From NCBI GenBank assembly GCA_015501595.1, contig JADNRX010000003.1, positions 62,001-126,000 of the forward strand: 64,000 nt of DNA. The letters are read 5' to 3'. This document shows positions 4,914 through 49,057 of this stretch, in pieces (positions within the stretch are counted from its first letter, which is position 1; each line of letters opens with the position of its first letter). This DNA comes from Hymenopellis radicata. Lineage: Eukaryota; Basidiomycota; Agaricomycetes; Agaricales; Physalacriaceae. The position numbers and the translations under genes are program-made. The notes below the pieces were generated by a model that worked only from the letters and a program-made list of their open reading frames with translations, did not search any database and had not been told where the DNA came from.

Positions 4914-5001
4914 GGCCTGATGGTCTAGTAGTATGATTCCTTGTTAGGGTATCTGTGTACACTTCTCGAGGAGGTCCCGGGTTCAATTCCCGGTCAGGCC
5001 C
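4914..5001 (+). tRNA. tRNA-Pro (anticodon AGG), with intron
   Basis: The acceptor stem GGCCTGA/TCAGGCC pairs over 7 bp with discriminator C. The anticodon stem CCTTG/CGAGG closes the loop TTAGGG, giving anticodon AGG at 4946-4948. A T-arm GGTCCCGGGTTCAATTCCCGG is visible apart from the variable loop. An intron of about 16 nt (4950-4965) sits after position 37, the standard eukaryotic site. A T7 run at about 5025-5031 would serve as Pol III terminator. The body matches the tRNA at 32406-32485 except in the intron and one acceptor pair. Confidence 0.95.
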
Positions 5002-5123
5002 TGCGTCCATGATCGTACCAGTCAATTTTTTTATTATAGTTCTGTTCTGGTTACTGTGCTTTGCATAATTCCGTGAACACACCAACTTTTTGTCAAAACG
5101 ATCGACGGGCCCAGACCGCCCAC

Positions 5124-5446
5124 TAGGGTGGCGCAGTAAACCTCCGGGGGGGGTTAGTAACGGTATTGATACCGACCCCCCGGGAGGCCCTGGTTTTGAA
5201 ACTGTTAGTAACGGTTTCGATACCGGCACGTGCTTTTACCACGTGATGTGGCGCACCGCTCCGCCGCCCTCCGCCCGCCCTTATCCGCCACTTTCAGCTT
5301 GCCTGAGGGCCAGCGCGCCATCACGTGAATTTGTCACGTGTCGGTATCGAAACTGTACCGATACCTCGGCTGAGGTTTCAATACCATATCGATACTGTTA
5401 ATAACTGCGAGGTGTATCGAAACCTAGGGTTTACTGCACCACCCTA
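5124..5446 (-). mobile_element. hAT-like MITE, copy 1 (323 bp)
   Basis: The ends TAGGGTGG...CCACCCTA are flanked by a perfect 8-bp duplication CCGCCCAC (5116-5123 and 5447-5454). The inverted repeat extends imperfectly inward (GCGCAGTAAACC against GGTTTACTGCACC). The interior has repeated GGTATCGATACC-type words and CACGTG boxes. No transposase is encoded. 8-bp duplications and TAGGG ends are typical of the hAT superfamily, so this is a non-autonomous member by inference. It begins 122 bp past the tRNA-Pro 3' end. Strand is given relative to copies 2 and 3. Confidence 0.9.
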
Positions 5447-5584
5447 CCGCCCACGGAGCCGCGCCTTCTCGGCACCAAGGTGGCCGCCCATGACTAACGG
5501 ACCTATACCGCCATCCCATGCACCTCAAAGATCAATGTTGGTTAAAAGGAAGTATATTTAAGGTAGTCTTGGTACATTAGGATA

Positions 5585-5690
5585 CTCGAGAAGGCTGGCG
5601 GAAGGAGAGGAATGCCGAGGCGGTGGGAGAATACTCCCCTCCGCCGATATGCCGCGGACCGGATGTGCGGTCCGATTATTTTTATTTTTT
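5585..5690. other. GC-rich stem-loops followed by T-rich tract
   Basis: Two clear hairpins can be read: GGCGG-TGGGAG with CTCCCC-TCCGCC at about 5620-5646, and CGGACCG with CGGTCCG at about 5656-5675. A T-rich run follows to 5690. They lie inside the 674-bp element. This may be element structure or a structured transcript; there is no further support. Confidence 0.35.
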
Positions 5691-5889
5691 TGAGATGTTC
5701 ACGGAATTATGCAAAGGGCAGTAAACTCTTGTGCTTGAGCCTTGAAGCTTGACTCTTGAGCTAGTCTGAGTAGAACTGCAGTCGTACTTAATTCAATGTT
5801 GTTTATTCTTTTTTTCGTAGCAAATGTTCTTGAGCAGACAGGTCACGGCACGACCCGAGTAAATCGATCGTTGTAGGTTGCAGACGACG

Positions 5890-7662
5890 ATGACGAGCAC
5901 GTACAATACGCCTTTGGAACCCGTCTTTTCGTTCGTTGCAGAATGCCTCTCGTCGATGGAAAGGACTTTCTACAAGTTGCCTGGCTCTGCGATTATTGAA
6001 CGCTACGTCCGAAGCTCACACCAAAATGACCCCGGTCGGACACTGCTGGAACTCATCCTCTTCGCACTGGTCATTCGCACTCTGCTTCAGTCGCGAACGC
6101 GCGCTGAGAGGTCTGCCAAAAATTTTATAGAGTTTTCCGACAAGGTGCGTCGGCTTTATCTGCCCTCAGAACCTCAGGACTCAGGCTATTGCTAGGAAGT
6201 TGACGAACTCGTTGATGAATGGGTACCGGAACCGCTGGCACAACCGTTGACTGAACGAGAAGAGGCCGAGCTCAATTTTGCACCCGTTATTGTTGGCCAG
6301 AGCGGTCCCAAGCCCAAACTTGCGTCGACCGGCAAGACAGTGCTCAACCTCTCCAGTCTTAATTTCACCAATCTTGCTGGGAACGAAGTAATCAAGGACA
6401 AAGCTATCGATGCCCTCAAGAAATACGGCGTTGGGAGCTGTGGTCCTGCTGGGTTCTATGGCACCGTTGGTTACGTGTATTGACATCAACCCTATTCCCT
6501 CACTCATCACTTTCGTAGACGCGCACTTGGATTTGGAACGGGACATCGCCGACTTTTTGGGTACAGAAGCGGCTATCTTATATTCTCAAGGCTTCTCCAC
6601 CATCACTTCAGTTATTCCTGCCTTCTGCAAACGAGGAGATATTATTGTGGCCGACCGTAGCGTCTCCTTCCCAATCCAGAAGGGCATGCAGATCTCCCGT
6701 TCGACAATTCGCTGGTTTGATCACAACGACTTGAAGAGTCTCGAGGATGTTCTTATTTCCCTCGAGAAGGAACGCAAGAAGCGTCGTGCGCCCTTGACTC
6801 GTCGCTTCATCGTTACAGAAGGCATCTTTGAGAAGGACGGCGCCATGGCGGACTTGCCGAAATTGGTACGACTTTCGTTCCATTCACGCGATTAACCAAT
6901 GCTCACATACCCTCAGATTGAACTAAAGACAAAGTACAAGTACCGTCTCATTCTTGACGAGTCTTTTTCCTTTGGCACTGTCGGACGTACTGGACGCGGA
7001 CTTACCGAACTCTACAACGTGCCTGCATCCAAGGTCGACATGCTCATCGGTTCAGTCGCCATCGGTCTCTGTGCAGCAGGTGGCTTCTGCGCCGGAACCC
7101 AATTCGTCGTAGAGCACCAGCGCATTAACGGTCCTGGCTTCGTCTTTTCTGCCTCGATGCCGCCTCTTCTCGCCGTGAGCGGCTCTGAGGGAATCAATAT
7201 CCTACGTTCCTCCCCCTCCATCCTCGAATCGCTTCATGATAACACGCGTGCTGCTCGCTCTATCCTCGATAGAGTAGAAGGCATCACGATTCCATCGCAT
7301 CCCGCTTCTCCCATGATACATATTCAACTCAAGACGCCCTCGACGAGCAGTTTACATCCGGCTGCCGCTGCGCATCATCCTACCAAGCCTTCCAATCCCT
7401 CGTCGATCCTTCCAAGGGAGGCTAGCGCGTGGAACTGGGACATCGCGACAGAGGAGAATATTCTTCAGGACGTAGTGGAAGAGGCTTTAGCGCAGGGCGT
7501 CTTGATTTCGAAGGCCCAGCGTCTGAGGGGCAGGAAATGGTCGAAGTGCGGCCGAGTATCCGTCTCACGATGACTTCTGGGCTCACGAAGAAGGAGACGG
7601 AGAAAGCTGTTGGGATCGTCAAGGCGGCGCTGCAGAAGGTGTTGTCGAAGCGCAGATGGTAA
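5890..7662 (+). CDS. lcb1: Serine palmitoyltransferase subunit LCB1 (one-base frame break)
   Basis: Four exons (5890-6144, 6196-6469, 6519-6865, 6917-7662) give about 540 residues, a normal size for LCB1. The enzyme condenses serine with palmitoyl-CoA, the first step of sphingolipid synthesis, in the ER with LCB2. Seen: an N-terminal hydrophobic stretch (about residues 55-70), [43 protein letters not shown] and [10 protein letters not shown]. The last is the LCB1 form, which lacks the PLP-binding lysine of LCB2. The frame breaks at about 7527-7535: the C-terminal [11 protein letters not shown] continues only if one base is missing in the GGGG run. I read this as an assembly error. The gene is intact otherwise. 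Confidence 0.95.
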
Positions 7663-9695
7663 TCTATATTTGGTATAGTAAGTATGGCTCTTGGGGTACC
7701 TAATCATGGCGTCCCGCTAATTGTTCGTTACAGTATACTTTGAATGTCGTTAATCTCTAGACCTATACAATGCATTTAGCTATCAGCCGAAGCGGGATGC
7801 AGTTGTGGATTTACGCGACAAGTCAACCTTTTTGTTCACCGCCACTTTGGACCGAGTTTCAACGTCTCGAGAACTTCTGAATCTGATGGTCATTTACACT
7901 CGGGTTACTTGGGTGATTATAGAATCTTAACAGCTGTTCAAGCATCAGGACCAGCCGCAAATCGTCGGTCAATGAAACTCGTTGAAGTCTATTCAATTAA
8001 AGACGGGGCCACCCGCTTTTCTGACATTTGAAGACGGGATCTCTGCTCTAGTCTCTTCTGATGTGTTGGGTTATCAATCAGTGACATACAAGATAGGGAG
8101 ACGAACAACATCGAGTGAGTTGGTCGTTCGGGAGTAAGCGCGCTGATTTAGCGTTGCACGTCAATGATGATTCCTGTCTGGAGCTGGTAACTATCTATGC
8201 TTGATACCCAATGGCAAAAGACGCTAACAAGCCGCATTACAGGAGTTCCAGACTCGAGAACGAGGGTGCCTTCGTGTTTGTGGCCATATAGCAGGCAACA
8301 TGCATATGACATTGTCATGTACGTGCGTCTTCTTAGTACCCGCGTCCACACACCCTTGAGAGCGATTCACACCCAAGACAACGGTGGCGAGCTCTTCCCG
8401 AAAGCTCGGTCCACGAGGAGGCCGCCTATTTCCCCACCATACCTTCTTGTGCCTATCTGGACTTCACACGACCGCCGTGTCCAAACGTCGCAGGCTCAAC
8501 ATGTACACGGTGGGCTCATATGATCAACTTGTACTTACCAGTGCGAGTTCTGGGCCGGCGATGGAGAAGACGAGAAAGGCTGCGCGCCGGAAGCTGTGGT
8601 CGTAGTAATCTCGCCTAGGCCGGCGCATCGATATCACTAAATCACTATCAGCTGGTGCGGGAACGAAATCACACTCTTTGGTCTTTTTGCTGTTTGTTGT
8701 GAAGTTCGCCCTTGGACCGGGTTTCGACGGCTTGAGAACTTCGCCACGATCTGATAGTTCCCCGCGTCTCTGCGAATGGGGTGGAGGGGGCAAAACTTCG
8801 GTTTGTGCATGTTCATTCCCGAGGGCCGAGTAACGTGGTCCGACGCGGGAGCTCAAAAGAGGCAGATATCGTTGAAAGTAGACATCTTTAGAATGGAACA
8901 TGTTACAGATTACAACAGTTAGTTGGGGCTGCCGTACATAGAGAAAAGGGTAATCATCTGCGCGCGCACTGTCACCGAGAACACTGTGACTTTGGACACA
9001 TGGAATGGAACACACGTCTGCGGCGTGGCAGATTATGTGCGTCCCAGTGACACGGGGAACGGCTTTGCTTTTTTGTCCCCGAAAATCGTGTGTGCATGCG
9101 AAGGATCATTAGGACAATAGGCGTTATGAAGGCGATCCACACTGACAATAGGGTAAACTGGACGCGTGAATCAGATGGAGAGACGAGACCGCAGTGCCGT
9201 TGCCATCAGGAAAACTCGAAGACGAAAATACGTCGGATCCCTTTTGCTGGGGAGGTGTTTCCTCATTCGACCGGTGCTTCGTCTCTATTGGGCCCGAGTC
9301 GAGAGAAGGTCGCATGACCCGCGAAGACAATAGTGCGGCTGGGTGGCGCTATTGTTTTGAGCCTGCAATGATATCAAAGTGGCGGTGGTTCATTCAACTC
9401 AGCGGAATCCGAACAAAGTAAAGCAAAATGGCGACAACATTCATGATTCAATTGTATTTGTGTGCGGAGTTGTATCGTACAAATGGAAAGTTCGGGTGTG
9501 TGTGGTACAAGTGGTACAGAGGCTAAACGAGAGAAGTATGATTAAGTTTCTAATATATAAAAACGAGGGAGTATAACTACTATAGCATAATGAAAGCGAA
9601 GCGAACTGAGGACAGGGAGTGGGGGTGGGACGCAGAAAAATATATAAGCGCCGTGCAAGTCAAAGGTGGTGCATGGAGGAGGATGAGGATGAGAA
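7663..9695. other. Gene-poor region
   Basis: No product recognised. A minus-strand frame at 8524-9015 (163 codons) contains a moderately hydrophobic stretch (AAFLVFSIAGPELALV) that could be an exon of a membrane protein, but I cannot build a gene from it. The rest shows only short frames. Confidence 0.35.
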
Positions 9696-10350
9696 TTAGG
9701 CGACTGATATTTCAATGAAGCTGCGCCATCGCCACGAGTCCTCGTCTTTGAGGTCCATGAACGATTGAAGCGGCTGCAGCGATGCATGTTTTGATCGAGA
9801 CGAGATGGAGCGTGACTTTGTGGAGAAGAATGATGTGGACGTGTTGGTGAGGACGGTGGGAGACGACTGGGAGTATGCGTGCTGGCGGCGAATGGATGGT
9901 GGCAATTCGATGAAGGACTCATCATCATCGGACGACTCGTCGCTCGACATCTCATCATCGCCTTCGTCGTCCGTCATGCTCATAAAGTTTTGGCTGATCG
10001 TCGCCAGGACGGGCCGTTTGCCCTTTCCCTCGAGCCGGGCGAGGGCATCAGAGCGATTCAGGCGACGGTAGCGGGTCGAAGCCGAACTGGGTGTCCTCGC
10101 GATGGCGGGAGGGGACGGCAGAACGGTGCTGGGAGCTGGTTTGGGAGATGGAAGGAATCGTGGCGAGTCTGGTAGTGCCCTGTATACATATCGTTAGACT
10201 TTGAAGGCTTGTAAACAATGAGCACGTACGGTGGTAAAGACTCGGCATGGTCGAATGAAAGAAAAGACCTGAGGTCCTCTGCATAGTCGGATTGGAGAGC
10301 AAGAAGCCCGACGTGAAGAACGGCGAATAGGGTGAGCCTGTGCGGAACAT
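9696..10350 (-). CDS. Small Ser-rich acidic protein of unknown function
   Basis: Three exons (10350-10313, 10268-10230, 10179-9696) with introns of 44 and 50 nt add up to exactly 187 codons. The start reads MFRTGSPYSPFFT. The middle has an acidic Ser/Asp patch (MTDDEGDDEMSSDESSDDDESF, in two parts around residues 105-127) followed by Ser-rich sequence, and the end reads RWRSFIEISVA. It has no signal peptide, membrane segment or known domain. A TATA-like TATATAACC lies about 90 bp upstream. Exon 1 and its short intron are inferred from frame alone. Confidence 0.55.
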
Positions 10351-13300
10351 GGTGATGCTTGGCGCTGTCGAAGACGACGACGACGATATAGAGGGGTGTG
10401 GCGGAAAGCCTTGCTCTGGTCAGCTTAGCCTCGTCGGTTATATACCGGTTGGCCTCATGTTTTGTGACTGCAGGGCCAGGGTGCCTCTAAAAACTGGATC
10501 GAGATCCACGGTTTTCGGCCTTCTTCCCCATTTGGCGCCACGTCACACTAACGCCATACTTTCCTAAACAGGGCATCCCAATTGTCAGGTTGATTGTGTC
10601 AAGTTTCCTTGGAGACTTACGCACGTCGCAGAATGATGTTGCTGTGCGCTTCGTTCCACGGCCACCTAGGTATGATGGCCTCCATACCCATTATGCATCA
10701 GAGTATACCTCAGCTCCCATCGCAGTACGAAATTCTCTCGCCACGCTGGTAGTCACATCAACCGTTTTCTTCCGTGGGTGCCTCGATGATTGAACGTCGT
10801 CATGTCAATCTTGTACGTACACCTTTAATTGTCTTTACTCTTAATTGCGCGCCTCCTCTCCAATTATTACCTTACAGTACCACCTGTCTGCCAAAACGCT
10901 CTTCGACTCCGAATAATACGCTACTCTGCGCATCTTCCGAGCCCGCTAGAATCCAAATCGCTTCCCCGTGCCAACCATATACATTTTGGCCATGACGATC
11001 ACTCCAAAGAATTATACAGTTCGATGGTATGGATTGAAAAGCCCCATTGTTCTTCCCTGTCTGCGTCATGCATGACAGGCAATTACTCCCAATCAAGCAC
11101 TCTCGCGCCTTATCGGATCGTGGCCAGGGAGGAACAATTGAACGCTTTGAATCAACAGACTCGCGTTCTACTCCGCACGGAGCCTCCTATACAGGGTAGA
11201 TCGCGTTCATTTACGCCTGGGAAACACAAACGCGGAGCGCGTCGGCTCTGTGTGACTAGACTCGGACCTTGCGCGATGGAAATTCCAACATCCGCGGTCG
11301 TATGTTTTGCTCAAAAAATACTTGACTTGGCTAAGGCTTCCTCCTCACCGTTTTGCCATCTAGATTTGCTTCCGAACAACAATGCTCTTTCATCTTCCCT
11401 CTTCTCGAGTTCGCCTATCACCCATCACTGCTTTGTTCTCTCTCTTCCATTGTCCTCGTCCTCGTCCTTTGTCCGACGTCATCGCAGTTATGTACCTCTC
11501 TGCAGGGCTGTTGCCATGCTTCCCCAAGTCAATCGGTCGGTGCGCACTTCCGTTTCGGTTCCTGACGTGACTCCTAAGCCGCCTTTTACTTTCTCTGCCG
11601 ACAAAAAAGCCTCTGATTTTCTGCTCCCGCCCCACATGATTTTCCAAAAAGAGTCACCAACGACTATGTGGCTCCATCACGGCGCCCTCCGTCTCTTACT
11701 CATTGCACTCCAAGTCTCCAACGCGATGCGGGATTTACATGAAACATGACGACGACGGCCACACGGCGGGATCATATTGGATCCACTCTAATGCCCTCCA
11801 TCTCAATCATATTGCGGTATTATATTCTAGTACACTTCCTTGCCTTTCAATTGGAGCAACGTCCGAAATGCCCACAGTTCCCTCAGTTCTGGTCTGACAG
11901 CCTTTTGGCGGCGATGATTCGCAGGGTCTAATGCAATTACCGATCGCGTCGTTGTAGCTGTAAAGGGTCCGAGCATATGCAGCACTCACCTCATGGCGCC
12001 GTGCTACGTGCTCTGCAGCCTTGTCACGGACCACGCAAAAAATACACGTTGCCCCGCTGTCTACTTCGTTGCAATCGGCCGTTACAGGCGGAATTATGGG
12101 ATATTGACAGGCGGTGAATTCCTCTGAGCGCGACTCCAGACTCCAGAGCGGAAGGTCGGTAAGATATGGTAATGTGGCGCACTTTTTACATGCAGATATG
12201 ACGAGAACGCTTTATCTCCCCGGCTCTCCCTGGATTGTGGCCAAGTCCAGGACGAATTCGAACTCCACGTCCCCGGTGCTCTTTTGCAGCCATGTCGCCG
12301 AACGAGCTGACATGTGTTTGATAAGAATCGCTGAATGAGAAAGTCATCTTTCATCGTATGTTTTTGGTGTATTTCATGCAATGTGGTTAGTTTATGGACT
12401 AGCTGAGGGGCAAAGCGCGCCATATCAACTTTCTACGCGCAATATGACCGACAGACCAGCGTGTTGGACCAGAGTTTCCCGATGCAGTACTGACAATTGG
12501 TTTTTGTGGGCGCGCGCTCCCGGGTGGGGAAGGGTCGGGAGAGCGCTAGCTCGAAACGGATCGGAGCTAGCACATCCCGGTGCTGATGACGGTGGCTGAC
12601 TTGCAAGTTGGGGTCATCAATGACAACAGCAGTCCAACGACGCGTCGGTTATTTTGTCATCAACATAACATGACTGGACGCTGGCTAGGCGCTGCAGGGA
12701 TGACGCCACAATCCGATTGTATGATTAACAAAGAAGATTGCTTCCACGGGGGCTTGATAGATATCTGTTCAACGAACGTGTGATTAGATGGATGTAAAGA
12801 AAGTGTGCTATCAATCGACCGGAATGGCTTACGATGGCGATGCTATTCGAGTTCAGGTCCGAGTGCGAGCTAAGTACGAGATATCATGATGAGGGACAAG
12901 ACAAGCACTAGTAGCAGCGGAATGATTCAATGTATGTCATCGCGCACAGTTCTACTCACCAGCACTACGAACATGCCATAGGTTAGCCTCCGACGCGGGA
13001 TATGGCACTGGTGGCGTACGTCCTTGAAGCTATAAGCATCACGAGGCGTATGTCCGTGGACCTACGCCGCGTAACAACCCACTTTGCCTGAATGGCGGAT
13101 GTAGACCGCTCGTTTCAGAGCCTATGTACATAGGTCAGCGGACGTCGCTCGCTACACAGCCGATTCCGGGGATGCTACCTCTGAATGCCGAACCCTCAGT
13201 GTGATATACGGCCCACGGGTGTAAAGATAAAATGACTGGACCTGAGCCAAGCTTGCGGCGAAAGTCGTTTCTGATTCGCCGGCGACAAATAGAGCTACGC

Positions 13301-28684: not shown

Positions 28685-29268
28685 CACATCGGGGGTATTG
28701 ACTTTTCCGAGCTGAGAAAGTAGTTAGGGAAATTGAATTTTGTATGCTCAGAAAATTAGATTTCTCCAATCCCATTTCAGGAAGTTTGCTTTTCCGGGCC
28801 GAGAAAAGATCCCAGGAAACGTGATTATCTGAGTCCTTTTCTCAGTCGGGAAAGTTTGATTTTCTCGGCTCAGACGGCAGCTGAGAAAGGCAGCTTTTCT
28901 CGTTGCTTTTCTCAGCGGAGAAAGCCTGATTTTCTGAGATGACAAAGGCCCTTGCACACCTCTGGCCTGTTTTTCTAGCTGAGAAAGGCATACAAGGGCC
29001 TTTGTCACCTCGGAAAATCAGGCTTTCTCGGCTGAGAAAAGTAATTAGAAAAGCTGCCTTTCTCAGCTGCCGTCTGAGCCGAGAAAATCAAACTTTCCCG
29101 ACTGAGAAAAGGACTCAGATAATCACGTTTCCTGGGATCTTTTCTCGGCCCGGAAAAGCAAACTTCCTGAAATGGGATTGCATCTGGAGAAATCTAATTT
29201 TCTGAGCATACAAAATTCAATTTCCCTAACTACTTTCTCAGCTCGGAAAAGTCAATACCCCCGATGTG
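28685..29268. mobile_element. Palindromic snap-back element, copy 1 (584 bp)
   Basis: Starts CACATCGGGGGTATTGAC and ends with its inverse, flanked by a 3-bp duplication AGA (28682-28684 and 29269-29271). The two arms of about 285 bp are nearly perfect inverted copies around a centre near 28977. The arms are full of CTGAGAAA and TTTTCTC words on both strands. No real coding capacity: the frames here mirror each other. CAC...GTG ends with a 3-bp duplication recall CACTA-type elements, but that link is inference. It fills the space between the two dehydrogenase genes and ends 64 bp before the second start codon. Confidence 0.9.
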
Positions 29269-30455: not shown

Positions 30456-30861
30456 ACCTCTTCATAACAAGTCGCGATGTATATTAACAGACCTAGGACC
30501 ATTTGTCCCAACACAGAAGTCGTTATCAGAGGCCTGTGTGCCAGAGGAGAGAACATGTTATTTGTGGATGCCTCGAATAGTCGTGCCTCTCTGCACAACG
30601 CGCGGAAAGTCTGCATTGGTACCGTCTTATCCCTACCCGGTAACCCGACCGGCGACCGCGTAAAAATTAAAACTAGGGTGGTGAAGTAAACCCTTGGTTT
30701 TGATACACCTCAGGTTTACTGCGGTTACTAACGGTATCGATACGGTATTGAAACTGTCGGGGGTCGGGAGGTAGGTTTCAATACCGGCACGTGATCACTT
30801 CACGTGACGGCGCGCTGGCGCTAAGAGAAGCTGAGGGTTTACCGATCATGACGCTGGGTTG

Positions 30862-30940
30862 TTATATGCCATGCCGAATGTTATATGCCATGCCGGCGTT
30901 ATATGCCAGCCGAGACGCGGCGATCAATGGTTATATGCCA
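30862..30940 (+). repeat. Subterminal repeat TTATATGCCA x4
   Basis: Copies at 30862, 30881, 30899 and 30931, irregularly spaced (18-32 bp), within 110 bp of the element's left end. Such clustered short repeats are typical transposase-binding sites; that role is inferred. Confidence 0.8.
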
Positions 30941-30944
30941 CTTG

Positions 30945-31534
30945 CACATCGGGGGTATCAAATTTTCTGGGCTGAGAAAATAGTTTGAAAAATCCGATTT
31001 TCTATGCCTAGAAAAGCCAATTTTCTCGGAATCAATCCCATCTTGGAAAGTTTGCATTTTCTGTCTGAGAAATGATCTTGGGAAACTTGATTTTCTCGGA
31101 AACTTCCCAATCTGGGAAAGTCTGATTTTCTCAGCGCAGACGGCATCTGAGAAAGGCAGCTTTTCTTGTCACTTTTCTCAGTTGGTAAACCCTGATTTTC
31201 CGAGATGACAAAGGCTCTTGCATGCCTTTCTCAGCTAGGAAAACAGTTCAAAGGCTTACAAGAGCCTTTGTCATCTCAGAAAATCAGGCTTTCCCTGCTG
31301 AGAAAAGCGACAAGAAAAGCTGCCTTTCTCAGATGCCGTCTGCGCTGAGAAAATCAGACTTTCCCAGATTGGGAAGTTTCCGAGAAAATCAAGTTTCCCA
31401 AGATCATTTCTCAGACAGAAAATGCAAACTTTCCAAGATGGGATTGATTCCGAGAAAATTGGCTTTTCTAGGCATAGAAAATCGGATTTTTCTAACTATT
31501 TTCTCAGTCCAGAAAATTTGATACCCCCGATGTG
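30945..31534. mobile_element. Palindromic snap-back element, copy 2 (590 bp)
   Basis: CACATCGGGGGTATCAAA and its inverse form the ends; 3-bp duplication TTG at 30942-30944 and 31535-31537. The arms are near-perfect inverted copies around about 31240. It is homologous to copy 1 over its length but clearly diverged, while the two arms of each copy match each other far better than the two copies do. It sits inside the 1341-bp element. Confidence 0.9.
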
Positions 31535-32405
31535 TTGTAGCTTTCGTTGCTTGCTCTGTCCCGTGTAATCTTTAAAATTGTACAGAACAGCTTGAACAAC
31601 ATTGCTCTCGAGATGAACAAGGATTTGAGGAGAACCGAGTCCAAAAAACGGAGCCGTCAATCACTGGCGGCGCATGAGCCGGTTATCTCCGAGCAGGCCT
31701 GAGGAAGCGGCCACTTAGTATCAACTCAGTATATAGCCTGCATCTACGTGTTGACAGACATTCATAGCTACTCTCTGAAGAAACCGAAGCGGTCTTGCTA
31801 CGCCATGCGTCGTCGGCCCACCAAATCAGGAATGAACCCAGGTTAGGGTTACAAGACGTGGCGCTCTCACGCAAGTTTGGCGCGTTCTCATCTGCTTCTC
31901 ACTCTCAAAACTCGAGATGTACTGTGAGATTGGCATGGATGTGAATATGGGAGAGAGCGGATGCGTTGCAAGGCAGGATGACGCCTTCCGACACCTGCAT
32001 CAAATTTTGAGCGCGCGCGTAGCGCGAGAAATTTGAGATTGTACACTACAATCTATACTTTGTGACTTCCTCAGGACAGCCTCCAACTGAGCTGCCAAAG
32101 TTCCTTTCCTTTCTTTTATTGAATTCTTTTTTTGCAGTTTTCGGGCCGAAATACCCAGTAGAACGATCGGAAAACCAAGCTGAGAGTGGCGGGACAAGGG
32201 CGGGATGAGGGCGGCAAGCCGCTGCGCCACATCACGTGTCCAAAACACGTGCCGGTATCGAAACCGTTACTAACAGTATCGAAACTAGGGCCTCCTAGGG
32301 GGTCGGTATTGATACCGTTACTAACACCCCCGGGAGGTTTACTGCGCCACCCTAATTAAAACGGCTAATGTGGCGCATTTATGCTGCGTGGGCGACAAAA
32401 CAACA

Positions 32406-32485
32406 GGGCCTAACCGGGAATTGAACCCGGGACCTCCTCGATAGATTATCCCTAACAAGGAATCATACTACTAGACCATCAGGCC
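32406..32485 (-). tRNA. tRNA-Pro (anticodon AGG), with intron
   Basis: Reads GGCCTGATGGTCTAGTAG from 32485 downward. Acceptor GGCCTGA/TTAGGCC (one G-U), discriminator C, anticodon stem CCTTG/CGAGG, anticodon AGG at 32453-32451. The intron after position 37 is only about 8 nt. A TTTT run follows about 10 nt past the 3' end. Confidence 0.95.
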
Positions 32486-39048: not shown

Positions 39049-39228
39049 TGTGGAGTAGGATTGGGATTTCGATGAAGGACTGCAGCGCTCGAGGGAGCCA
39101 ATAAATAGTATAGCTTTGCAGGGTTCGGTGACGTGCGGAACGTCCATCTGGAACTATTCCAGACTTCGCCGACCTACTTCCAGATTTATCAATGAAGTTC
39201 CAGTTCTGACTTGCTGTAACATTCCGCT

Positions 39229-39874: not shown

Positions 39875-40864
39875 ATGGCGTCGAACAAAGCTCGCGCAGC
39901 TCTTTCTGCTGGCCAACAAGTTACCTTATTTGACCGATGGACTTTGCGGCCTTGGTCAATGCGCACTTGTACAAAAGAAAACTTCTTGGGGGGGTCTCAG
40001 TGTACTACTCGCTACCTAAATACTCCCATCCTCTGCCAAAATGCTAAGCAGTTTAGACGACAGCTACTTTTACATGTGTGTTACCAGCTTTCTGCCTTGG
40101 TCTACGCGATTTGATGTTTTCAGCAGTGCAGTCTCTCCACAGCATGCCGTCGATCCTAGCGGCCCATCCTCTAGTTCTCTAGACGTGCCCATGTCTGACA
40201 ACGAGGTAGACGGTGAATACTCTGAAGACGATGAGATAGATGGGGAATACTCAGAAGACGACGAGGAACGCGCCAGGTATGTTCAAATTGCACCACACCG
40301 TGTCTCGAAATAACAACCAACTGCAGTGGCTACGAAACCTTCAGTATTCGGAATGGTCGTGTTTACTCTAGTGCCGCTGTGCCATCGCCCACTGCGACGC
40401 CCGACATCAATGGCTCGACTGGAAAGCCGAACGCAGGCCAAGCGCGTTTCCCTCCTACTCCCGAAGACCTCCATGCTCTCCGAGTCAACTACACACGAAA
40501 ATATGTTGCTATCATGACGCAGGACGTGCCGGAGGAGTTCATGGCGCGTCCTCACGCCAACCGTTTCTACCTCTCACTCTACCCCAGTATCTCCCAGCAA
40601 AGGAAACTCGGCTTCTCGCCACCTCGACGATCTAGCAATGATGAGCGGAAAGCTGCGCTTGAGAAGGACGACTGGATTGAGCCGGGAAGCGTGACGAAGG
40701 CAAGTGTAGTTTGCCGAGGATGTAAGCAAGTTGTAGGACCAGCATTCAAGAATTTGCGCCGGGGGTACTACTGGGGTGATGCATGGGTGCGCCATCGAGC
40801 GACCTGTGCTCGGTATACGAGATGTGGTGTCTGCAGCATGGAGTACGTGTACCCTGATTTGTAG
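39875..40864 (+). CDS. Unknown protein with CxxC...H...C zinc-like motif
   Basis: The likely start is MASNKARAALSAGQQVTLF at 39875. The join to the next exon is not resolved. From about 40124 the frame reads SSAVSPQHAVDPSGPSSSS and an acidic duplicated DGEYSEDDE segment. A clean 50-nt intron (about 40277-40326) leads to YETFSIRNGRVYS. The last part ends with VVCRGCKQVVGPAF, GYYWGDAWVRHRATC and a stop at 40864. The CxxC plus HxxxC arrangement suggests one zinc site, and I recall this C-terminal type from Agaricomycete proteins of unknown role. The intron chain in the 5' half is uncertain. Confidence 0.6.
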
Positions 40865-41200
40865 ATGATATAATGACTCGGAACTTGAAATTTACTGGAA
40901 AGTCTGTGTCCATGCGCGTAAAACTATAGTGGAACGGGGCGAGTTCCGTACCTCTTCTTGACTGGTACGTATGTAATCTCTCTTTCAACGGACAGGCAAG
41001 AAGACTTGTACAGTATGCGTCCCTCCCTTCAAGTTCTCAGCTTGGTTGACTTGACTTTCATAAATCTACAGGGTTGAAGTCATGCTCAGGCTCTTCCTCA
41101 CTCGTACTCACGCCCAAGACCTGAACTTCTCATCTCCACGCCGTCTTCCTGTACTATACAATCATTGACGGGCGAACTCGGCGCGAACTCTACCCTTCTC

Positions 41201-41930
41201 ATGAAGAAGACACCTGTTCTTCTGTCTTCTTCTCTCTTTACTTCCTTCATTACGCTAGCTTGTACACTTCCAGCTCCGAGATGGCACAGATGCGCTGATC
41301 AAGGGTCTATCCCCTTCTACGAGAGGACCGACAGTGTACATCATAATAAAACGTGGGCGTCTCCGACTTTCCCGATGCCCATCACCTTACCGTGTACCCT
41401 CAAGGAACGGGCTATATATACTCCTCGATTTCTCGCCTATCTGCCCGACTTCCTCTTTCCCCTGCTGGCGTGAACCATCATGCCCTCACTACACGTGAGA
41501 CGGAAGAGCCCACATGGTTGAAAGCGATGTGGCTCATACTGGCCGTGATCGGCTTGTTGGGCATTATCTTCTTTCTCATCCTCAGTTTTCGCGCGGCCTC
41601 GAAATTCAGGCGTCAGCGCCCTACCCCGTTGCCGCTGGTGTACCCGTTGACAGCGGAGACAGCAAGTTGGGAGCGATCGTTCCCATCATCCTCGGCGAGT
41701 CTTCCGCAGGGGTCTGCGAATCCTCAGGCATTGGTCCCCGAACATGGGCGCACGCCTTCGAGGGATCTCAATTTGCTTCCCCGCCTTGTCATCCCGAAAC
41801 TTCCACCAAACATACGATTCCAGCGCCCGTGGAGACGCCCGCGTCATCTGGCGTCACCGCTGACTCGGTCAGAAAGCGCAAGCAGGAGGCGCTTCCTCTC
41901 CTCCTACCAGCCACCGAAATCCCCGTGTAG
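41201..41930 (+). CDS. Single-pass membrane protein with signal peptide, two one-base breaks
   Basis: MKKTPVLLSSSLFTSFITLA is a signal peptide. After a short ectodomain comes a clear membrane segment (MWLILAVIGLLGIIFFLILS, about residues 125-145) and a basic stop-transfer region. The tail ends ALPLLLPATEIPV at 41930. Three frames must be joined, each by one missing base, at the A-runs near 41348-41351 and 41602-41604. Both joins restore natural sequence (VHHNK to VGVSDFPDAHH; RAASK to QASAPYPVAAG). Function unknown; likely a small surface or secretory-pathway protein. Confidence 0.55.
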
Positions 41931-42067
41931 TGACACCCTACTATACTAAAGACGGCCTGAATATTTATGCAATCTTTCAGAGGCCAAGCCTCGAGATGCC
42001 ACAATGGGGTCGTGGCGACCAATTATTGAGAGGGCTTCATTAACTGCCACGAGGCTGCCCCATTTCC

Positions 42068-42194
42068 TCTAAGAGAGGCTGAGAGTGGAGGGACAAAGGC
42101 GGGCGGAGTGCCCACTGCGCCACATCATGTGTTGGTATCGAAACCGTTTTGAATCGAGAGCCTCCAAGGGTCGGTATCAATGATATCTCGATTC
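42068..42194 (+). mobile_element. Truncated hAT-like MITE relic
   Basis: AGAGAGGCTGAGAGTGGAGG and GCGCCACATCATGTG followed by GGTATCGAAACCGTT match the right half of copies 2 and 3 with many changes. The left half and the right end are missing. The 6.3-kb transposon is inserted in or next to its degraded right side. Confidence 0.7.
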
Positions 42195-42257
42195 CAAGGG
42201 GGTTCCTCAGAAAAGTTTTTGTACACTAGGCCGATTAATATTTTTCGAGGCTCGACC

Positions 42258-42273
42258 TCGGACCTACCTACCT
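42258..42273 (+). repeat. Subterminal 16-bp repeat, left copy
   Basis: TCGGACCTACCTACCT, 63 bp inside the left end. The same sequence in the same orientation lies at 48468-48483, 37 bp inside the right end. A candidate transposase-binding site, by analogy with other DNA transposons. Confidence 0.75.
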
Positions 42274-42348
42274 CTATGACGTCATAAATGTCACGTGATG
42301 CGTTATTTACCGTATTCGGAATATCTACCCCGCACTTCTTCCCCACCT

Positions 42349-45300
42349 TCATCGCCGTCTCTTTCCATCGCGCTCGCTACCTCTGCACCCATCGCACACC
42401 CATCGCTGGGGTACAAAATCCATCCCCAGACACGCCATGTGGAACTGCTGGACTATTAGAATGGACCAACTATACGGAAATCAATATTCTTCACGCACCC
42501 AGCCTGTTTCACATCCGGCTCGCGTGCATTTTGCTGCAGCACCTCGCTCACTCTCGGGAACGGCGATTCCACATTCACAGTGGCCAAGCATGTTCGTTAG
42601 ATCCATCCCCTTACGCTTTCTTCCCGATCGACGACTACCACCTGCAACTGGGCCCGGCTCTGGCATGGGTATGAGTCCCGCCGGTATTGGATTCGCCAGC
42701 GTCGTCGCAGAAGCTGCTGGATTATTTGAAGCAACTGGTTCAATGGGTCGTGAGTCGGATGCTGGCTCTGATCGTGGTCGCGTCGCGTCAGAATGTGGCC
42801 GCGAAAGGGCGTTGTCACTCTCGTTTGGTGCGTTCATTTCCGCGTCCATAGCTTCGATTGACGTTCCATTGGCCTCCACAGGATCATTCTCTGGCGCAGG
42901 CATGTCCTCTCCCTCGTCTCCTGTTTCCTCCGCCTCAATTTCTGATTCAGACGATAACGCCTCGGATTCACCAGAACCCTCATCGAGCCAGTGTGCGTCC
43001 TCGGCAGCAAGACGTGGCAGACCCCCAAAGGTGGTTGAAATTGGAGGTCTGTTACCTGTTTGCTCATCCCATTCACCATGCTCACTGTTGTCCAGGTCAC
43101 CAGGTCCTGCAGACACGCTATGCCTAGATATTAATCAATACCCTCTTCAATATATCGTGATTTCGACGCTTACCTGTGTGACGTTCGCGTGCTGTGAGCT
43201 TCCGAGATCACCAGAGCACCAATTTCCTTCAGCGCCTTCGCCTCACCTCGGGATTTCTTCGGCTTCGACTGTTTCTTCCGCTCCGTGTATACCTTTCTCA
43301 TTGCCTTCTTCTCTGATGGAGAGATATCCCAATCGGCCTTGTACAAGTTAAGGTCTGCATTGGGATGCACCTTCTTGTAGTGCTCGCGTGCTGTGTACTT
43401 CCAAATTGCAGGGGCATTGGAATCCGAGCGGCTGCAGATACGGCATTCGATGGGAACATTCGAGCACGGGCTTTTCGCAGTCGAATTGGCAGCTACGGCG
43501 TATTTAAAGCCACGAGTATTCAACGACTTGAATACGACGCAGCCGCGGGTGCGCTTTCGATCAATTTGCGTATTGCCCCCCTTCGTCAGGAAGAACTCAC
43601 AATGGGGTGCAGGTGATAGACATAATCCGCACGGGAGGAGCGACTTCTGGACGCCGCCGAATTGGATATGTGCACCTACATGTGCGATGATGTTCTGGGG
43701 TTTCGACAGATCGAAGGGAATCATAGGGTCTACGCCGCACTCAGAGCAGTAGATTGTATCACCAATATCCCGAAAACTGGCCTCAGTTTCGCAAAGGAAG
43801 CACACCTTACCTGGGAAAGTGTGAATTGACATCGAAAAATAGGAACATTGTCTCGACCTACCAGAAGACTCGCGGTACGGAAAATTCTTGGATCGAATCA
43901 CCGAAGGTATTCTCTTGTTCCTCTGCGCGTTCACTGAATCTGCAGATGCTGACTCCAACCGTTGCAGGAGTTCTGTTCCGAGCGCAATAAGCTCCGTACT
44001 GTCAAGAAGCCAAAAGGTCGGCCCAACCTCTGGACTGCCGAGCTGTGGAGAAATGGGCTGTACAAATTGCCCCGGTACAGTGTAGCAGGCGGGGCGCGGT
44101 CGACTTCGAGTACGCCAGTCATTCTTGAGTGTCGGGTCATCGTCAGCAGTCGCAGGAACGAGGTCGATGATTTGGAACTCGACAGACACGCCGTCCTCTC
44201 CCAGAATATCTAACCCCACGTCGGTTACTGAGGAATCCTTGGAGCCTCCGATGGTGATATCTGTCACCGCACCAATGCATACGAACAGTTGATGTTCGCA
44301 GTAAAGGAGTGTAGCCACTGGTTCCCCGATGATCAGTACAGGCTGCATAGTGTCCTCGAAGTCGTCGTCAATGGAGCTCAGTGCAACACGCGACCGGTCA
44401 AAGCTGAAGCGCTTGATCTCTTGAACGCGCTTCAGACGGTCGGTGGAACTGATCTCATTTCGATAGCGTGAGTGGATTTTGATTGCTCGCGCTTTATTCA
44501 CTTTCTTGCCATCCATGAAAACAAAGCGATCAAAGACGCGCTTCGTCACATCTGAGACTACAATGTCTTCATCCTCAGCGATCTGATCTTCAAGTTCCCG
44601 TACTCCAGAGTCATCCATATCAAGCCGTGGACTAGCTTCAGATGCAATTGGGGTAATGGCAGGGCGGCGAATAGAGGTAATGGCAGGGCGGCGAATAGAT
44701 GGAGGAGCTACGGCAGTGCCTGCGTGCGAAGACGGGGAAATATGTGCTGGTGTTGCTGCACCATCGGAAATAGAATCTGTCTCATCAATCATCTGCGTAT
44801 TGTTGGGAATATTGGACGCGCTGGGAATATCAGACGCGTTGGGAATATCGGACGCGTTGGGAATATTGGACGCGTTGGGAATATCGGACGCGTCGGGAAC
44901 ATCAGACGCGTCAGGAACATCAGGATCCTCGTTGTCATCCTCAGCGAGAGGCAGATCCATGAGAAGGACACCACATGGACTCAGAATACTAATGGAGCGC
45001 TTGTCACGGTCAAGTGCGGCAAAGAGAGGAGCGAGCTCTGGGTTGTCATCTTCAACCATACGGCGTCCGCCGCGCCAGCATGTCTGTAAGACGACGTTGG
45101 ACAGTGAGACATCAGCACGCCATGACCGGGGATTGATACGATCCACCCCAGAGTCTAAGATCTGATGCCCCTCCTTTGAGACTGCAGGTAACTGAAGCCG
45201 GCGTGGACTGCTGTCCCACTCTGGCTTCATAGCTAGTATGTTCGAAACCTCGGTTGTCCCGGTAAGGCGGGTAGCGAGCTGGAAGAGATCCACGTTCGCA

Positions 45301-48266
45301 TCTGTGCCAACAATTGTGCGCAGAATCCCAAAGAGTGTTTCTAAACGATCCGTTCCGAGCAGTATAATCCAAAACATGCCGGACGGATTGTCGATCTTCC
45401 CTTTTGCTACGCAAAAATAGACGTTCTTGATCATAATCATGATGTCTGTGTATAGGAGTGTCGGGATGAAGTCCTTGCCTGCCTCTCGGAAGAGAGCCAA
45501 GGCAAGATGAGCTGCCGCGCTGAGGTGACGAAGTTGCTCGCTCAATGTGAGATCGACACAAATGTATGGAAAGATGAGATGGCGGAACAGCGATCCCAGT
45601 AAGCGAAGGGCCTTCCGCTGGGCCACAAATATTGGCTGCGCGGACGTTGTCTCAGGCAGAGACCAGAGATCGCGCATGAGTTGATATGCAAGTGTTACAT
45701 CCTGCTTGTCATCTGGCTTGAATAGCGAATCAATGTGTTCTTTGCTGCCGCCGGCATCACGAAGATGAGATTTCATGATTGTTGGGTTGATGTGTGTTTC
45801 GCGAACGTCAAGACCACGCGCACGAAGCATGAGGTTCCGAAGTCGTTTGAAGACGTGTTTGTAGTCCTTGTCAGCCGTAAGATCATCATCACCAACATGG
45901 AAGTCCATGAACTCGAGGGGATGTAGAAGTCGATAAATGGGGGAACTCGGGGAGAGATCGTATTTGAAGGTCATATCTATAAGTGCTCCGCCGCGTTTTG
46001 TTTCGCCATCTGAAGCAATAGAGACGACGCGAAGCTTCGTCTCATCTTTCGTGCTATCAAGGGCATCGAGAACGGTCTGAAGAACTATGGCGTGTTCGGC
46101 CGAGGTTTCACGCTTGCAGGTACCGGAGACTAGAATGGGTCGAGCACCATATATTCGAGTGTTATCTGTGAGAATGCCGAGTGCACCAATGGTGGCCTTT
46201 AAATGAATAGTTAATATAAATAGTTAGGGGCTGTGGGAAGCTATTACCTCCGATGAGTAATGTACGTCCCCACAGTCTAGACTTCTGAATAGCTCCTTCA
46301 TCTCGTCGACCCCATTGAACTCTAGAGAAACTCGGTCTCCATGCTCACGACACGGTCCAAGGAAGTAGTTTGTCAAGTCATCCCATCGGATTCGCTTGTC
46401 AACTGAGATTTCGTCAAACATCACGACTTGATGGCACACGTCGCCCGACTTGCGACTCGCAGTCAGCTCCTCAGGCGACAGCACAGCTTCAATATTGCTC
46501 TTGATTTCGATTTCGGTTGGGGCACCATATGATGGTCGAATGCGAGGCATGGTAGAATTGCGGCGGAGTGTAGAGAGGCTTGGAATTTGATGGAGGGAAC
46601 GGTGCGCAATTTTTGCAACACGATTTCCACCGAGACGCCAAAGTAACAGCCCACGCAGATAATCTGACTCTTCGTATGGCTGTGGACGGTATGCACCCAT
46701 CGCCGCACGCTCATACAATGCAAGGAGCCCTTTGACGCCTAAACCGCGCTTTAGTCCAACACGGATGATGCGGTCAACGCCTTCTACTCTGCCACTACGG
46801 ATAGCGACTAGTAAGCGCTTGTGGTTGGACAATGCCCTCGCTCTCCCATGTAGAAGCTTCGAGTTGTTGAGACCCTTCAGCTTCAGCGCGTTCAACTGCT
46901 GGTTTTGACGATGATGACGGTCGACCAACTGGCGATGAGAAAAGTATCCAAGGTTCGTATTCTCCTGTATACCCTCTGTGATCCGCTTCATAATTCCCTC
47001 TAGAATTGAATTTATGGGGAGCATACGACATCGCGCACAAAGCGGGGAGTTCACGGCGTCGTCTCTCTTCCCTCTACAACCTGTCGCACGCAGGGTCAAG
47101 ACTCCTCCCTTGACAGCGTAATCCCAAGGAAGGTTGAGCTTGCTATGAAGAGCGAATGGATAGTCGTAATGGGGGGATGAACCTGGCGGAAATGTAGGTT
47201 GAAAGCCGATACAATGATTGTCTGAGCTTCGCTGATTATTGAACCTCGTAGGCTCGCTCACATCGGACAGCGCATCAACATCAATAATCTCATCTAATGC
47301 TGCTGCAGGTTCTGAGGATCGTGGAACCGGATTGTCGACATATTCGAGGTCATCAATTTCGGAGTGAACGGGCGGCGGAGGAGACGCAGAACGTTTTGGA
47401 CTAATTAATGGTGAGGTTCACTCTAAACGTAATAGTTCTATCACTTACAATGTATCCAGAGCATCGCGAAGGATGTCCACCTTCTCCTTAAACAGTCCGA
47501 TGTCGACACCGCGATCCATAACGAAGTATTGCACGAAGTCATAGAAGTTGCGGACACCAAGGATACCACCCCGAATCATGCCTTTGATTTCCTCTGGAGT
47601 CTTTCCCCATCCAAAGACGCGGTGAACGATGGCATTCAACCCCACTTCCCAGAGCTCGTCACCCAGGATTCCATTCGGCAGATAGGTACTCGGGTGATGC
47701 CCAAACGCTGCAAGTGGGTCATCACCCTCACATTCGGGGATAGTCGACGCGTCAACGGCATCAATAATCGCTTTGAAGTCGGACAACAGCGTGGTTGCAG
47801 GAGTGACGCGAGGCGGCTTGGGAAGTGCCGCGGCTTTTGGTGTAACTGCGATGGAACGAGGCGTATCTCGAGGAAGAATGGCAGAGGAAGTGGGTTGTAT
47901 GGGTACAGGAGAGTTGACTGGAGTTGCTGGAGGGAGCAAGGGATTGATGGCAGCTGGTGCCACAACGCGAGCTGGGACTGGAGGTGCTTTGGGCCGGAGA
48001 AAAGCACTCAGCCCACTTTGTTTGCCGTACTTCTTGGCATCGAATGCCTTCTTCTCCTTCTTCTCCTTGTTTTTCTCACATATGCCAGTTCCTACGTGCC
48101 GCTTAACGAGATTTTTGATGCCTCCTGCCCCCGTCTTCAAAATCTCGCCACATACTGCACATTTCGCCGTACCATCCCCCATGTCTTCAAACTAGCTTAC
48201 ATTAGTTATGAATGTATACTGCTGCTATCAATCGCTTACCTGATCCTCAGGTTTGTGAGCTGCCAT
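42349..48266 (-). CDS. P-element-like transposase with BED-like and PHD zinc fingers (1889 aa)
   Basis: Six exons (48266-48240, 48191-47449, 47400-46248, 46196-43174, 43123-42499, 42447-42349) total exactly 1890 codons. The N-terminus has a BED-like finger (CAVCGEIL, later RHVGTGIC), then a Pro-rich linker. Catalytic candidates in RNase-H-like order: D586 in VVMFDEIS, D704 in IASDGE, E927 in GTDRLETLFG. The LETLFG block recalls the LE-FFG motif of P-element and THAP9 transposases. An 18-bp repeat array encodes IPNASD units (about residue 1070-1110). Further CxxC pairs follow (VCFLCE, YCSECG, CRIC). The last exons form an ING-like PHD finger. An optional in-frame 51-nt intron near 43830-43880 would shorten it by 17 residues. 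It likely acts in the nucleus on its own TIRs. Confidence 0.9.
44805..44935 (-). repeat. 18-bp tandem repeat within transposase
   Basis: About seven units of the type TTGGGAATATCGGACGCG encode IPNASD/VPDASD in the minus-strand transposase. All units keep the frame. Confidence 0.85.
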
Positions 48267-48467
48267 GCTCGTCGTTAAGAGAAGAAGAGCTGGGCGGAAG
48301 TTGCCTAATCGGGAAACCTCACGCCCAACATGCGTATTAGCACAGCCATAGATGCAAATTCACTCCAAACATGTCTTAAAAGATCATAATATGGTGCATA
48401 TCATTGAATTGACACAGAAATCGTGAAAAGGATCACGTATAAAAAAAACTTTTTTCCGAGTCCTTGG

Positions 48468-48483
48468 TCGGACCTACCTACCT
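48468..48483 (+). repeat. Subterminal 16-bp repeat, right copy
   Basis: Identical to 42258-42273 and in direct orientation; see the left copy. Confidence 0.75.
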
Positions 48484-48580
48484 GCTCGGTATACCGGCCC
48501 GCATCTCCGGAACCCCCTTGCTCGATTCTCGGGTCCAGTGCTGATCATGAGTGACGGTCCGGGAGGTTAAAATTTAAAAG

Positions 48581-48912
48581 TAGGGTGGTGAAGTAAACCC
48601 TTGGTTTTGATACACCTCAGGTTTACTGCGGTTACTAACGGTATCGATACGGTATTGAAACTGTCGGGGGTCGGGAGGTAGGTTTCAATACCGGCACGTG
48701 ATCACTTCACGTGACGGCGCGCTGGCGCTAAGAGAAGCTGAGAGTGGCGGGACAAGGGCGGGATGAGGGCGGCAAGCCGCTGCGCCACATCACGTGTCCA
48801 AAACACGTGCCGGTATCGAAACCGTTACTAACAGTATCGAAACTAGGGCCTCCTAGGGGGTCGGTATTGATACCGTTACTAACACCCCCGGGAGGTTTAC
48901 TGCGCCACCCTA
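48581..48912 (+). mobile_element. hAT-like MITE, copy 3, intact (332 bp)
   Basis: TAGGGTGG...CCACCCTA with a perfect 8-bp duplication TTTAAAAG (48573-48580 and 48913-48920). It is the uninterrupted reference for copy 2. It ends 45 bp from the 3' end of the tRNA-Pro(CGG). The short gap between holds a further broken TIR-like word, GTTTACTGGTAACTGCGCCA, perhaps the footprint of another copy. Confidence 0.95.
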
Positions 48913-48957
48913 TTTAAAAGGTTTACTGGTAACTGCGCCACAGTAACAAAACCATTA

Positions 48958-49057
48958 GGGCTCAACCGGGAGTTGAACCCGGGACCTCGCACATCTAGCT
49001 GCCCAACAGGCAGGGGAAATTCCCGAAGCGCGAATCATACTACTAGACCATTGAGCC
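48958..49057 (-). tRNA. tRNA-Pro (anticodon CGG), with intron
   Basis: Acceptor GGCTCAA/TTGAGCC, discriminator C, anticodon stem CGCGC/GTGCG with one G-U, anticodon CGG at 49025-49023. The T-arm is GGTCCCGGGTTCAACTCCC. The intron after position 37 is about 28 nt (48994-49021). The D-arm TGGTCTAGTAGTATGATT is shared with the AGG genes. Confidence 0.93.

What the first reader, a model, noticed from the sequence alone, without database searches (positions are those of the whole stretch)
4914..49057. Every tRNA-Pro in the window carries the same hAT-like MITE just downstream, in one orientation
Three intact copies (5124-5446, 30674-32354, 48581-48912) have TAGGGTGG ends and perfect 8-bp duplications. 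They lie 122, 51 and 45 bp past the 3' ends of tRNA-Pro genes (AGG, AGG, CGG). Read along each tRNA, the element always starts with the GCGCAGTAAACC end. The duplications differ (CCGCCCAC, ATTAAAAC, TTTAAAAG), so these are independent insertions unless the tRNA units were later copied with small changes. tRNA-gene targeting is known for Ty- and DIRS-like retroelements; a hAT element with a tRNA-Pro preference would be new.
Basis: seen in the sequence. Interest (0 to 1): 0.9.

Follow-up and report, generated by a model that had tools for sequence, protein, structure and literature searches.

The report
DNA transposons landing beside tRNA genes
In a mushroom genome, a family of small cut-and-paste DNA transposons, with relatives that do likewise at least in part, sits just past the end of tRNA genes and similar small-RNA genes, nearly always facing the same way, a landing habit known so far from retrotransposons.

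Summary
The three elements (TAGGGTGG ends, perfect 8-bp duplications) lie 122, 51 and 45 bp past three tRNA-Pro genes. The genome (75.5 Mb, Hymenopellis radicata) holds 350 matches to the terminal repeat. Of 46 distinct sites read, 41 lie downstream of a tRNA or tRNA-like gene (3 weak calls), 2 of U6, 1 of U5, 2 of an unnamed repeat sharing a motif with U6 upstream regions; in 8 another element lies between. So the target is not Pro but looks like Pol III genes generally. From the gene side, 18 of 63 tRNA genes carry a same-strand end of family F1, F2 or F3 within 160 bp downstream, none upstream; 0.01-0.02 expected. Spacers and 5' flanks show no duplication. Insertion distance follows the terminator T-run (rho 0.57), not tRNA length (rho -0.05). 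Best reading: hAT-like non-autonomous elements whose unidentified transposase is tethered at the 3' end of Pol III genes. hAT membership rests on ends, duplications and a weak motif; no coding partner was found. In the papers searched I saw this habit only for retrotransposons.

The parts
4914..5001 (+). tRNA-Pro(AGG) gene with intron (ARAGORN calls it Asn)
   Evidence: anticodon loop read by eye
5116..5123 (.). target duplication CCGCCCAC, copy 1 (left)
5124..5446 (+). F1 element, copy 1; proximal end TAGGGTGGCGCAGTAAACC at 5124, 122 bp past the tRNA
5447..5454 (.). target duplication CCGCCCAC, copy 1 (right)
32406..32485 (-). tRNA-Pro(AGG) gene with short intron (ARAGORN with introns calls it Ser)
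   Evidence: anticodon loop read by eye
30674..32354 (-). F1 element, copy 2, with a nested 1.34-kb insert; proximal end at 32354, 51 bp past the tRNA
30666..30673 (.). target duplication ATTAAAAC, copy 2 (left)
32355..32362 (.). target duplication ATTAAAAC, copy 2 (right)
48958..49057 (-). tRNA-Pro(CGG) gene with 28-nt intron
48581..48912 (-). F1 element, copy 3; proximal end at 48912, 45 bp past the tRNA
48573..48580 (.). target duplication TTTAAAAG, copy 3 (left)
48913..48920 (.). target duplication TTTAAAAG, copy 3 (right)

Best explanation
These are non-autonomous (MITE-like) DNA transposons of hAT type, in at least three families with similar ends (F1, F2, F3, probably also F4). Their integration is directed to the DNA just past the 3' end of genes that look Pol III-transcribed: tRNA genes of many isotypes, U6, probably U5, and an unnamed U6-motif repeat. 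SHOWN for F1: the location (25-134 bp past the tRNA 3' end at 39 sites, each beyond a T-run), one orientation with one exception seen (L035), independent insertion, and generality over isotypes and gene classes. SHOWN IN PART for F2 and F3: several ends at tRNA, U6, U5 or motif-bearing genes, same side and strand; most of their flanks were not read. SUPPORTED: the anchor lies at the terminator side of the gene, because distance tracks the T-run and not tRNA length. INFERRED: a transposase, not identified, binds the asymmetric element ends and is tethered to a protein at the 3' end of active Pol III genes (terminating Pol III, or a TFIIIC-type factor reaching past the gene), so the element lands in that zone in one orientation. 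Repeated landings in one zone give the tandem and nested arrays seen.
For: Exact terminal repeats, mostly in contig order: 46 of 46 sites lie in the downstream zone of a small-RNA gene or of the U6-motif repeat: 41 tRNA or tRNA-like (L036 a weak 150-nt call, L047 and L068 by eye), 2 U6, 1 U5, 2 repeat X; in 8 of the 46 another element lies between. Gene side: 18 of 63 tRNAs, 0 upstream; 0.011 expected for F1 and F2, about 0.015 by hand with F3 added. 10 of 27 U6-type motif sites have a same-strand end within 400 bp downstream, 0 upstream, 0 opposite, 0.014 expected. Controls: among 43 elements with duplications, tRNA within 200 bp of the proximal end same strand 28, opposite strand 0, distal end 0; detector false positives 9 in 1.2 Mb. 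Independence. T-run before the insertion in 39 of 39 spacers; rho 0.57 with T-run, -0.05 with tRNA length, constrained permutation p 0.0003. hAT type: 39 of 61 ends with perfect 8-bp duplications; duplication motif nTnnnnAn p 0.0013 uncorrected; one coding hAT in the genome has an 8-bp duplication and the end TAGCGTTGTGC, 9 of 11 bases like the common F3 end TAGGGTTGCGC.
Against: No coding element with these ends was found, so neither the transposase nor the tether is known. The coding hAT in L083 has no tRNA in the flanks held (653 and 128 bp), so hATs at large need not do this. L022 has no small-RNA gene found within about 1.5 kb, L007 only a doubtful tRNA-like stretch, and L020 could not be judged (contig end). 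L035 is inverted, with F2 between it and the tRNA. U5 is usually a Pol II gene (recalled), so its being hit weakens 'Pol III only' unless U5 is Pol III here. In the duplications a G..C pattern at positions 1 and 8 scored as well as nTnnnnAn. 45 of 63 tRNAs have no listed end within 160 bp, though the F1 list is truncated.
Confidence: 0.8

Rival explanations
1. The tRNA gene plus MITE was copied as a block (segmental duplication), so the association arose once.
For: Copies 2 and 3 of the window are 99-100% alike; L077 holds a duplicated tRNA-Glu unit.
Against: 0 similar pairs among 39 spacers and 0 among 39 300-bp 5' flanks; many isotypes; duplications differ. In L077 the two tRNA-Glu copies were hit by different elements (F1/F4 end, F3).
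Confidence: 0.02
2. Insertion is random but only copies in the harmless zone beside tRNA genes survive selection.
For: Compact fungal genomes purge insertions in genes (general knowledge).
Against: Selection would leave copies in other intergenic DNA, on both sides of tRNA genes and in both orientations. The upstream side is empty (0 of 63) and orientation is nearly fixed. Six copies of another transposon family in the same genome show no tRNA in the 5' flanks held.
Confidence: 0.05
3. The transposase recognises DNA, not a protein: for F1, the subterminal repeat GGTTTCGATACC resembles the tRNA B-box GGTTCGANTCC and could dock on it.
For: Resemblance seen by eye in F1 repeats.
Against: F2 and F3 repeats (GGTAAATAACC-like, GGTTAATAACC-like, read by eye) lack TCGA yet hit the same zone. 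The U6-motif repeat is hit too, and insertion points share no strong sequence.
Confidence: 0.06
4. Targeting is to open, T-rich or nucleosome-free DNA in general, and tRNA gene ends are only the best examples (as titled for Hermes).
For: A T-run precedes all 39 insertions measured. Hermes in nucleosome-free regions: a reference title seen in PMC7337890.
Against: Open chromatin at Pol II promoters would then be hit too, yet the 46 sites of the sample fall at small-RNA genes or the U6-motif repeat. Orientation would not be fixed.
Confidence: 0.08

Closest known systems
TRE3 and Skipper-2 retrotransposons of Dictyostelium (PMC5911963, passages read)
   Same: Insert downstream of tRNA genes: TRE3 40-150 bp in the same transcription orientation, Skipper-2 8-23 bp in D. 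discoideum.
   Different: They are RNA-based retrotransposons. Here the elements have terminal inverted repeats and 8-bp duplications and also hit U6, U5 and a U6-motif repeat.
Dada DNA transposons (PMC3706591 abstract and passages; PMC8869645 passages)
   Same: DNA transposons specific for tRNA and snRNA genes.
   Different: Dada inserts inside the gene at a fixed sequence, with 6-7 bp duplications and mostly one target gene per family. Here insertion is outside the gene, over a zone, with 8-bp duplications and no strong shared site sequence.
Ty1 and Ty3 of yeast (PMC5911963 and PMC7175516, passages)
   Same: Pol III gene targeting, explained there by contacts with the Pol III machinery.
   Different: Upstream side; LTR retrotransposons.
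hAT superfamily
   Same: 8-bp duplications, short TAGGG ends, duplication motif nTnnnnAn (motifs recalled).
   Different: No hAT known to me targets Pol III genes; no transposase found here.
Mu and P elements (PMC7337890, passages)
   Same: DNA transposons with a transcription-linked insertion bias.
   Different: That paper ties them to Pol II initiation and reports no preference at tRNA and rRNA genes.

Membership tests
hAT | 8-bp target site duplication | tested here: met
   39 of 61 F1 proximal ends have a perfect 8-bp duplication, 4 more with one mismatch
hAT | short terminal inverted repeat starting YARNG (consensus recalled) | tested here: met
   TAGGGTGG..., TAGGGTCG..., TAGGGTTG...
hAT | duplication motif nTnnnnAn (Ac type, recalled) | tested here: inconclusive
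   T2 15/39 and A7 18/39, joint p 0.0013 uncorrected for 16 patterns; G1/C8 scored alike, p 0.0014
hAT | coding relative with hAT transposase and the same ends | tested here: inconclusive
   None of 70 PF05699 matches lies between listed facing F1/F2/F3 ends; the nearest is 3.7 kb from a closed F2 element. F1 listings are capped at 100; F2 and F3 are complete for their patterns. The C789 candidate could not be read
Dada | 6-7 bp duplications | tested here: not met
   8 bp
Dada | insertion inside the RNA gene at a fixed sequence | tested here: not met
   25-134 bp past the gene, no strong common sequence
tRNA-gene-targeted retrotransposons (TRE3, Skipper-2 type) | position downstream of tRNA genes | tested here: met
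tRNA-gene-targeted retrotransposons (TRE3, Skipper-2 type) | LTR or poly(A)/RT-type structure | tested here: not met
   inverted terminal repeats with 8-bp duplications; no LTR or poly(A) seen in the copies read

The most novel reading that the evidence does not exclude
A lineage of hAT-type transposases has evolved to dock on the terminating Pol III complex, or a factor bound at Pol III gene ends, so that a whole set of cut-and-paste families is delivered, in one orientation, into the DNA just past the terminator of nearly any Pol III gene: position-based targeting by a DNA transposon, parallel to but independent of Ty and TRE elements. The landing pattern could also reveal unknown Pol III genes, such as the U6-motif repeat.
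Probability: 0.5. Interest if true: 0.9.

Novelty: new variant of a known kind. Interest (0 to 1): 0.82.

Why it matters
In the papers searched, targeting to the flanks of Pol III genes is described for retrotransposons, while the one DNA transposon group I found for small-RNA genes (Dada) inserts at a sequence inside them. A DNA transposon that uses gene position gives a second, independent route to a safe-landing strategy, possibly through a different part of the Pol III machinery (the terminator side), and it would be a lead for site-directed cut-and-paste insertion tools. The insertions also act as natural markers of Pol III genes in a non-model mushroom and point to an unnamed candidate Pol III gene family.

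Tried and rejected
Rejected as the source of the elements: the 6.3-kb coding transposon at window 42195-48520 (ends CAAGGGGGTTCC, duplication CTCGATTC). It lies 437 bp past tRNA-Pro(CGG) and looked like the autonomous partner, but six other copies (L087-L092; L086 was internal) show no tRNA in the 5' flanks held, so its place is probably coincidence. Long F1 copies (L069 1258 bp, L057 740 bp, C507 1618 bp) look like MITEs with nested elements. L040 and L077 have F1-type ends followed by unrelated DNA; their ORFs were judged by eye, not searched. B-box mimicry was rejected because F2 and F3 lack it. 5S genes could not be tested: no 5S found, 47 of 3937 candidates scored. Rfam at gathering threshold found none of the window's three tRNAs and one at the lax threshold, so my own tRNA detector and ARAGORN with introns were used. 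Paper searches returned no paper; others returned papers that, by listing or by the passages read in six of them, do not describe this habit.

Sampling limits: F1 has 350 ends with up to 2 mismatches but only 100 are listed. Loci were read for 50 of these (46 distinct sites): the first 30, then 20 more in contig order, leaving out hits already held or in the window. The similarity sample L001-L030 overlaps it. There ARAGORN found a tRNA in 19 of 30 loci, one of them (L023) far from the element; B-box or tRNA-like by eye in L006, L008, L010, L013, L015 and L024; repeat X in L004 and L021; L007, L020 and L022 not explained. Flanks of most F2 (44 proximal ends) and F3 (55) copies could not be fetched.
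Full report
WHAT WAS CHECKED. The three window elements are as described: 5124-5446, 30674-32354 and 48581-48912, TAGGGTGG ends, perfect 8-bp duplications that differ from each other, 122, 51 and 45 bp past tRNA genes. ARAGORN names the third Pro(CGG) and misreads the intron-bearing other two; by eye both carry the Pro(AGG) loop. No further tRNA was found in the 64 kb, so each tRNA gene found in the window carries the element.

GENOME. The window is G000:C629:62001-126000 of a 75.5-Mb assembly. Four proteins named Hymenopellis radicata (P0001-P0004) lie on contigs of 372591, 104573, 32267 and 284384 bases, the lengths of C496, C513, C933 and C641, each with a matching hit, so the source is Hymenopellis radicata, of the Agaricales.

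ELEMENT SIDE. The terminal pattern TAGGGTGGCGCAGTAAACC with up to 2 mismatches has 350 matches against 2 for the reversed pattern. I read 50 of the 100 listed exact hits (L031-L080), 46 distinct sites. My detector finds a same-strand tRNA upstream of the end in 35, one of them (L036) a weak 150-nt call. Rfam adds L073 and L080. L070 was resolved after reorienting by its internal sequence. L035 is an inverted element with an F2 element between it and the tRNA. L047 and L068 have tRNA-like T-arms by eye. L046 and L067 lie past U6; L045 is a truncated F1 behind an F2 element that starts 66 bp past U5. L062 and L071 lie past repeat X. In 8 sites (L033, L035, L039, L040, L045, L055, L067, L068) another element or remnant sits between gene and end; several of these were read by eye. 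The similarity sample L001-L030 (overlapping) gives ARAGORN tRNAs in 19 of 30 loci, with L007, L020 and L022 unexplained. ARAGORN labels beside the elements (44 of 59 ends within 700 bp) include Gly, Leu, Ser, Phe, Gln, Ala, Thr, Ile, Val, Arg, Asp, Asn, Glu and Pro; some names are probably wrong because of introns.

GENE SIDE. Of 63 tRNA genes scored by Rfam without regard to the elements (63 of 2877 candidates), 16 have a same-strand F1 or F2 proximal end within 160 bp downstream and none has an end upstream; 0.011 expected. Adding the third family F3, C743 (52 bp) and C503 (81 bp) make 18 of 63, and a U6 gene (C553) has an F3 end at 28 bp. The F1 list is truncated, so this is a lower bound. 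F2 ends also lie past U5 (L045) and past the tRNA in L039. Most F2 and F3 flanks were not read.

A THIRD GENE CLASS. Repeat X, past which L004, L021, L062 and L071 sit at different points, shares the motif TACTCTGTAGRCTRWACAGAATRCA with the upstream regions of two U6 genes. The motif occurs 27 times in the genome with up to 3 mismatches; 10 of 27 have a same-strand F1, F2 or F3 end within 400 bp downstream, 0 upstream and 0 in the opposite orientation, 0.014 expected. That repeat X is a Pol III gene is inference.

CONTROLS. Of 43 elements with duplications (0-1 mismatch), 28 have a detector-called tRNA within 200 bp of the proximal end on the same strand; 0 on the opposite strand, 0 at the distal end; the detector makes 9 calls in 1.2 Mb of random sequence. 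Spacers (39) and 300-bp 5' flanks (39) show no similar pair. Downstream flanks show 23 similar pairs among 43; 15 were printed, of which 2 are repeat X, and I take the rest for other repeats without having examined them one by one.

MECHANISM. In 39 of 39 spacers a run of four or more T lies before the insertion, which follows 13-108 bp after it (median 42); distance to the tRNA end is 25-134 bp, median 63. Distance does not vary with tRNA length, introns included (rho -0.05, p 0.77), but rises with the position of the T-run (rho 0.57; permutation keeping the insertion behind the T-run, p 0.0003). So the anchor seems to be at the 3' side. A nearly fixed orientation implies that the two element ends are handled differently. 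Two U6 paralogs were hit by F1 and F3 about 25 bp apart, and two tRNA-Glu copies in L077 by an F1/F4 end and F3: the zone, not the sequence, is chosen. The transposase and its partner protein are not identified.

IDENTITY. 8-bp duplications (39 perfect of 61 ends), TAGGG ends and a weak nTnnnnAn motif suggest hAT. One coding hAT (L083, PF05699) has an 8-bp duplication and the end TAGCGTTGTGC, 9 of 11 bases like the common F3 end (10 of 11 with a rarer form), but no tRNA in the flanks held. None of 70 PF05699 matches lies between listed facing F1-F3 ends. C789 is a candidate that could not be read; by hand about 0.15 such pairings would be expected by chance.

KNOWN WORK. Passages of PMC5911963, PMC3706591, PMC8869645, PMC7337890, PMC7175516 and PMC1431731 were read. 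They describe retrotransposons upstream and downstream of tRNA genes, Dada inside RNA genes, and Mu and P elements without Pol III preference. Searches listed no paper whose listing points to a hAT or MITE with this habit; subscription journals are not covered.

Noticed in passing
window 42195-48520: Coding DNA transposon, 6326 bp, ends CAAGGGGGTTCC, 8-bp duplication CTCGATTC, large gene on the - strand, no Pfam hit in the two ORFs scanned, zinc-finger-like N-terminus and PHD-like C-terminus by eye; 523 homologs, of which the best 120 are listed, the named ones from Agaricomycetes.
   Followed up: partly
window 30836-32176: Nested insert in F1 copy 2 with ends GGTTTWCCGATC and apparent 8-bp duplication AAGCTGAG, holding a long fold-back that gives microRNA-family matches below their cut-offs; a similar fold-back at 28930-29017.
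   Followed up: no
L004, L021, L062, L071: Repeat X: multicopy sequence of roughly 400 bp or more with a U6-type upstream motif (27 motif sites in the genome, U6 genes included); candidate unknown Pol III gene or SINE.
   Followed up: partly
L045:513-628: U5 snRNA gene followed closely by a run of seven T, with an F2 element 66 bp downstream; U5 may be Pol III-transcribed here.
   Followed up: no
L046, L067: U6 genes appear to contain an intron or insertion (matches of 134 and 161 nt to a 105-position model) and share a conserved upstream motif.
   Followed up: no
window 2129, 12174, 21511, 25342, 32370, 48934, 53672: GTGGCGCA occurs 14 times in the window on both strands against about 2 expected; 6 lie in the three elements and one (42116) in an F1 fragment, the rest are scattered, possibly footprints or remnants; similar words stand in several tRNA spacers.
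   Followed up: no
G000:C789:32577-37317: Best-scoring hAT dimerisation domain of the genome search lies 4488 bp past a tRNA on the same strand; candidate autonomous partner, sequence could not be fetched.
   Followed up: partly
L077:1835-2850: Two copies of a tRNA-Glu unit with similar spacers, one hit by an F1/F4 end, the other by F3, at nearly the same point.
   Followed up: partly
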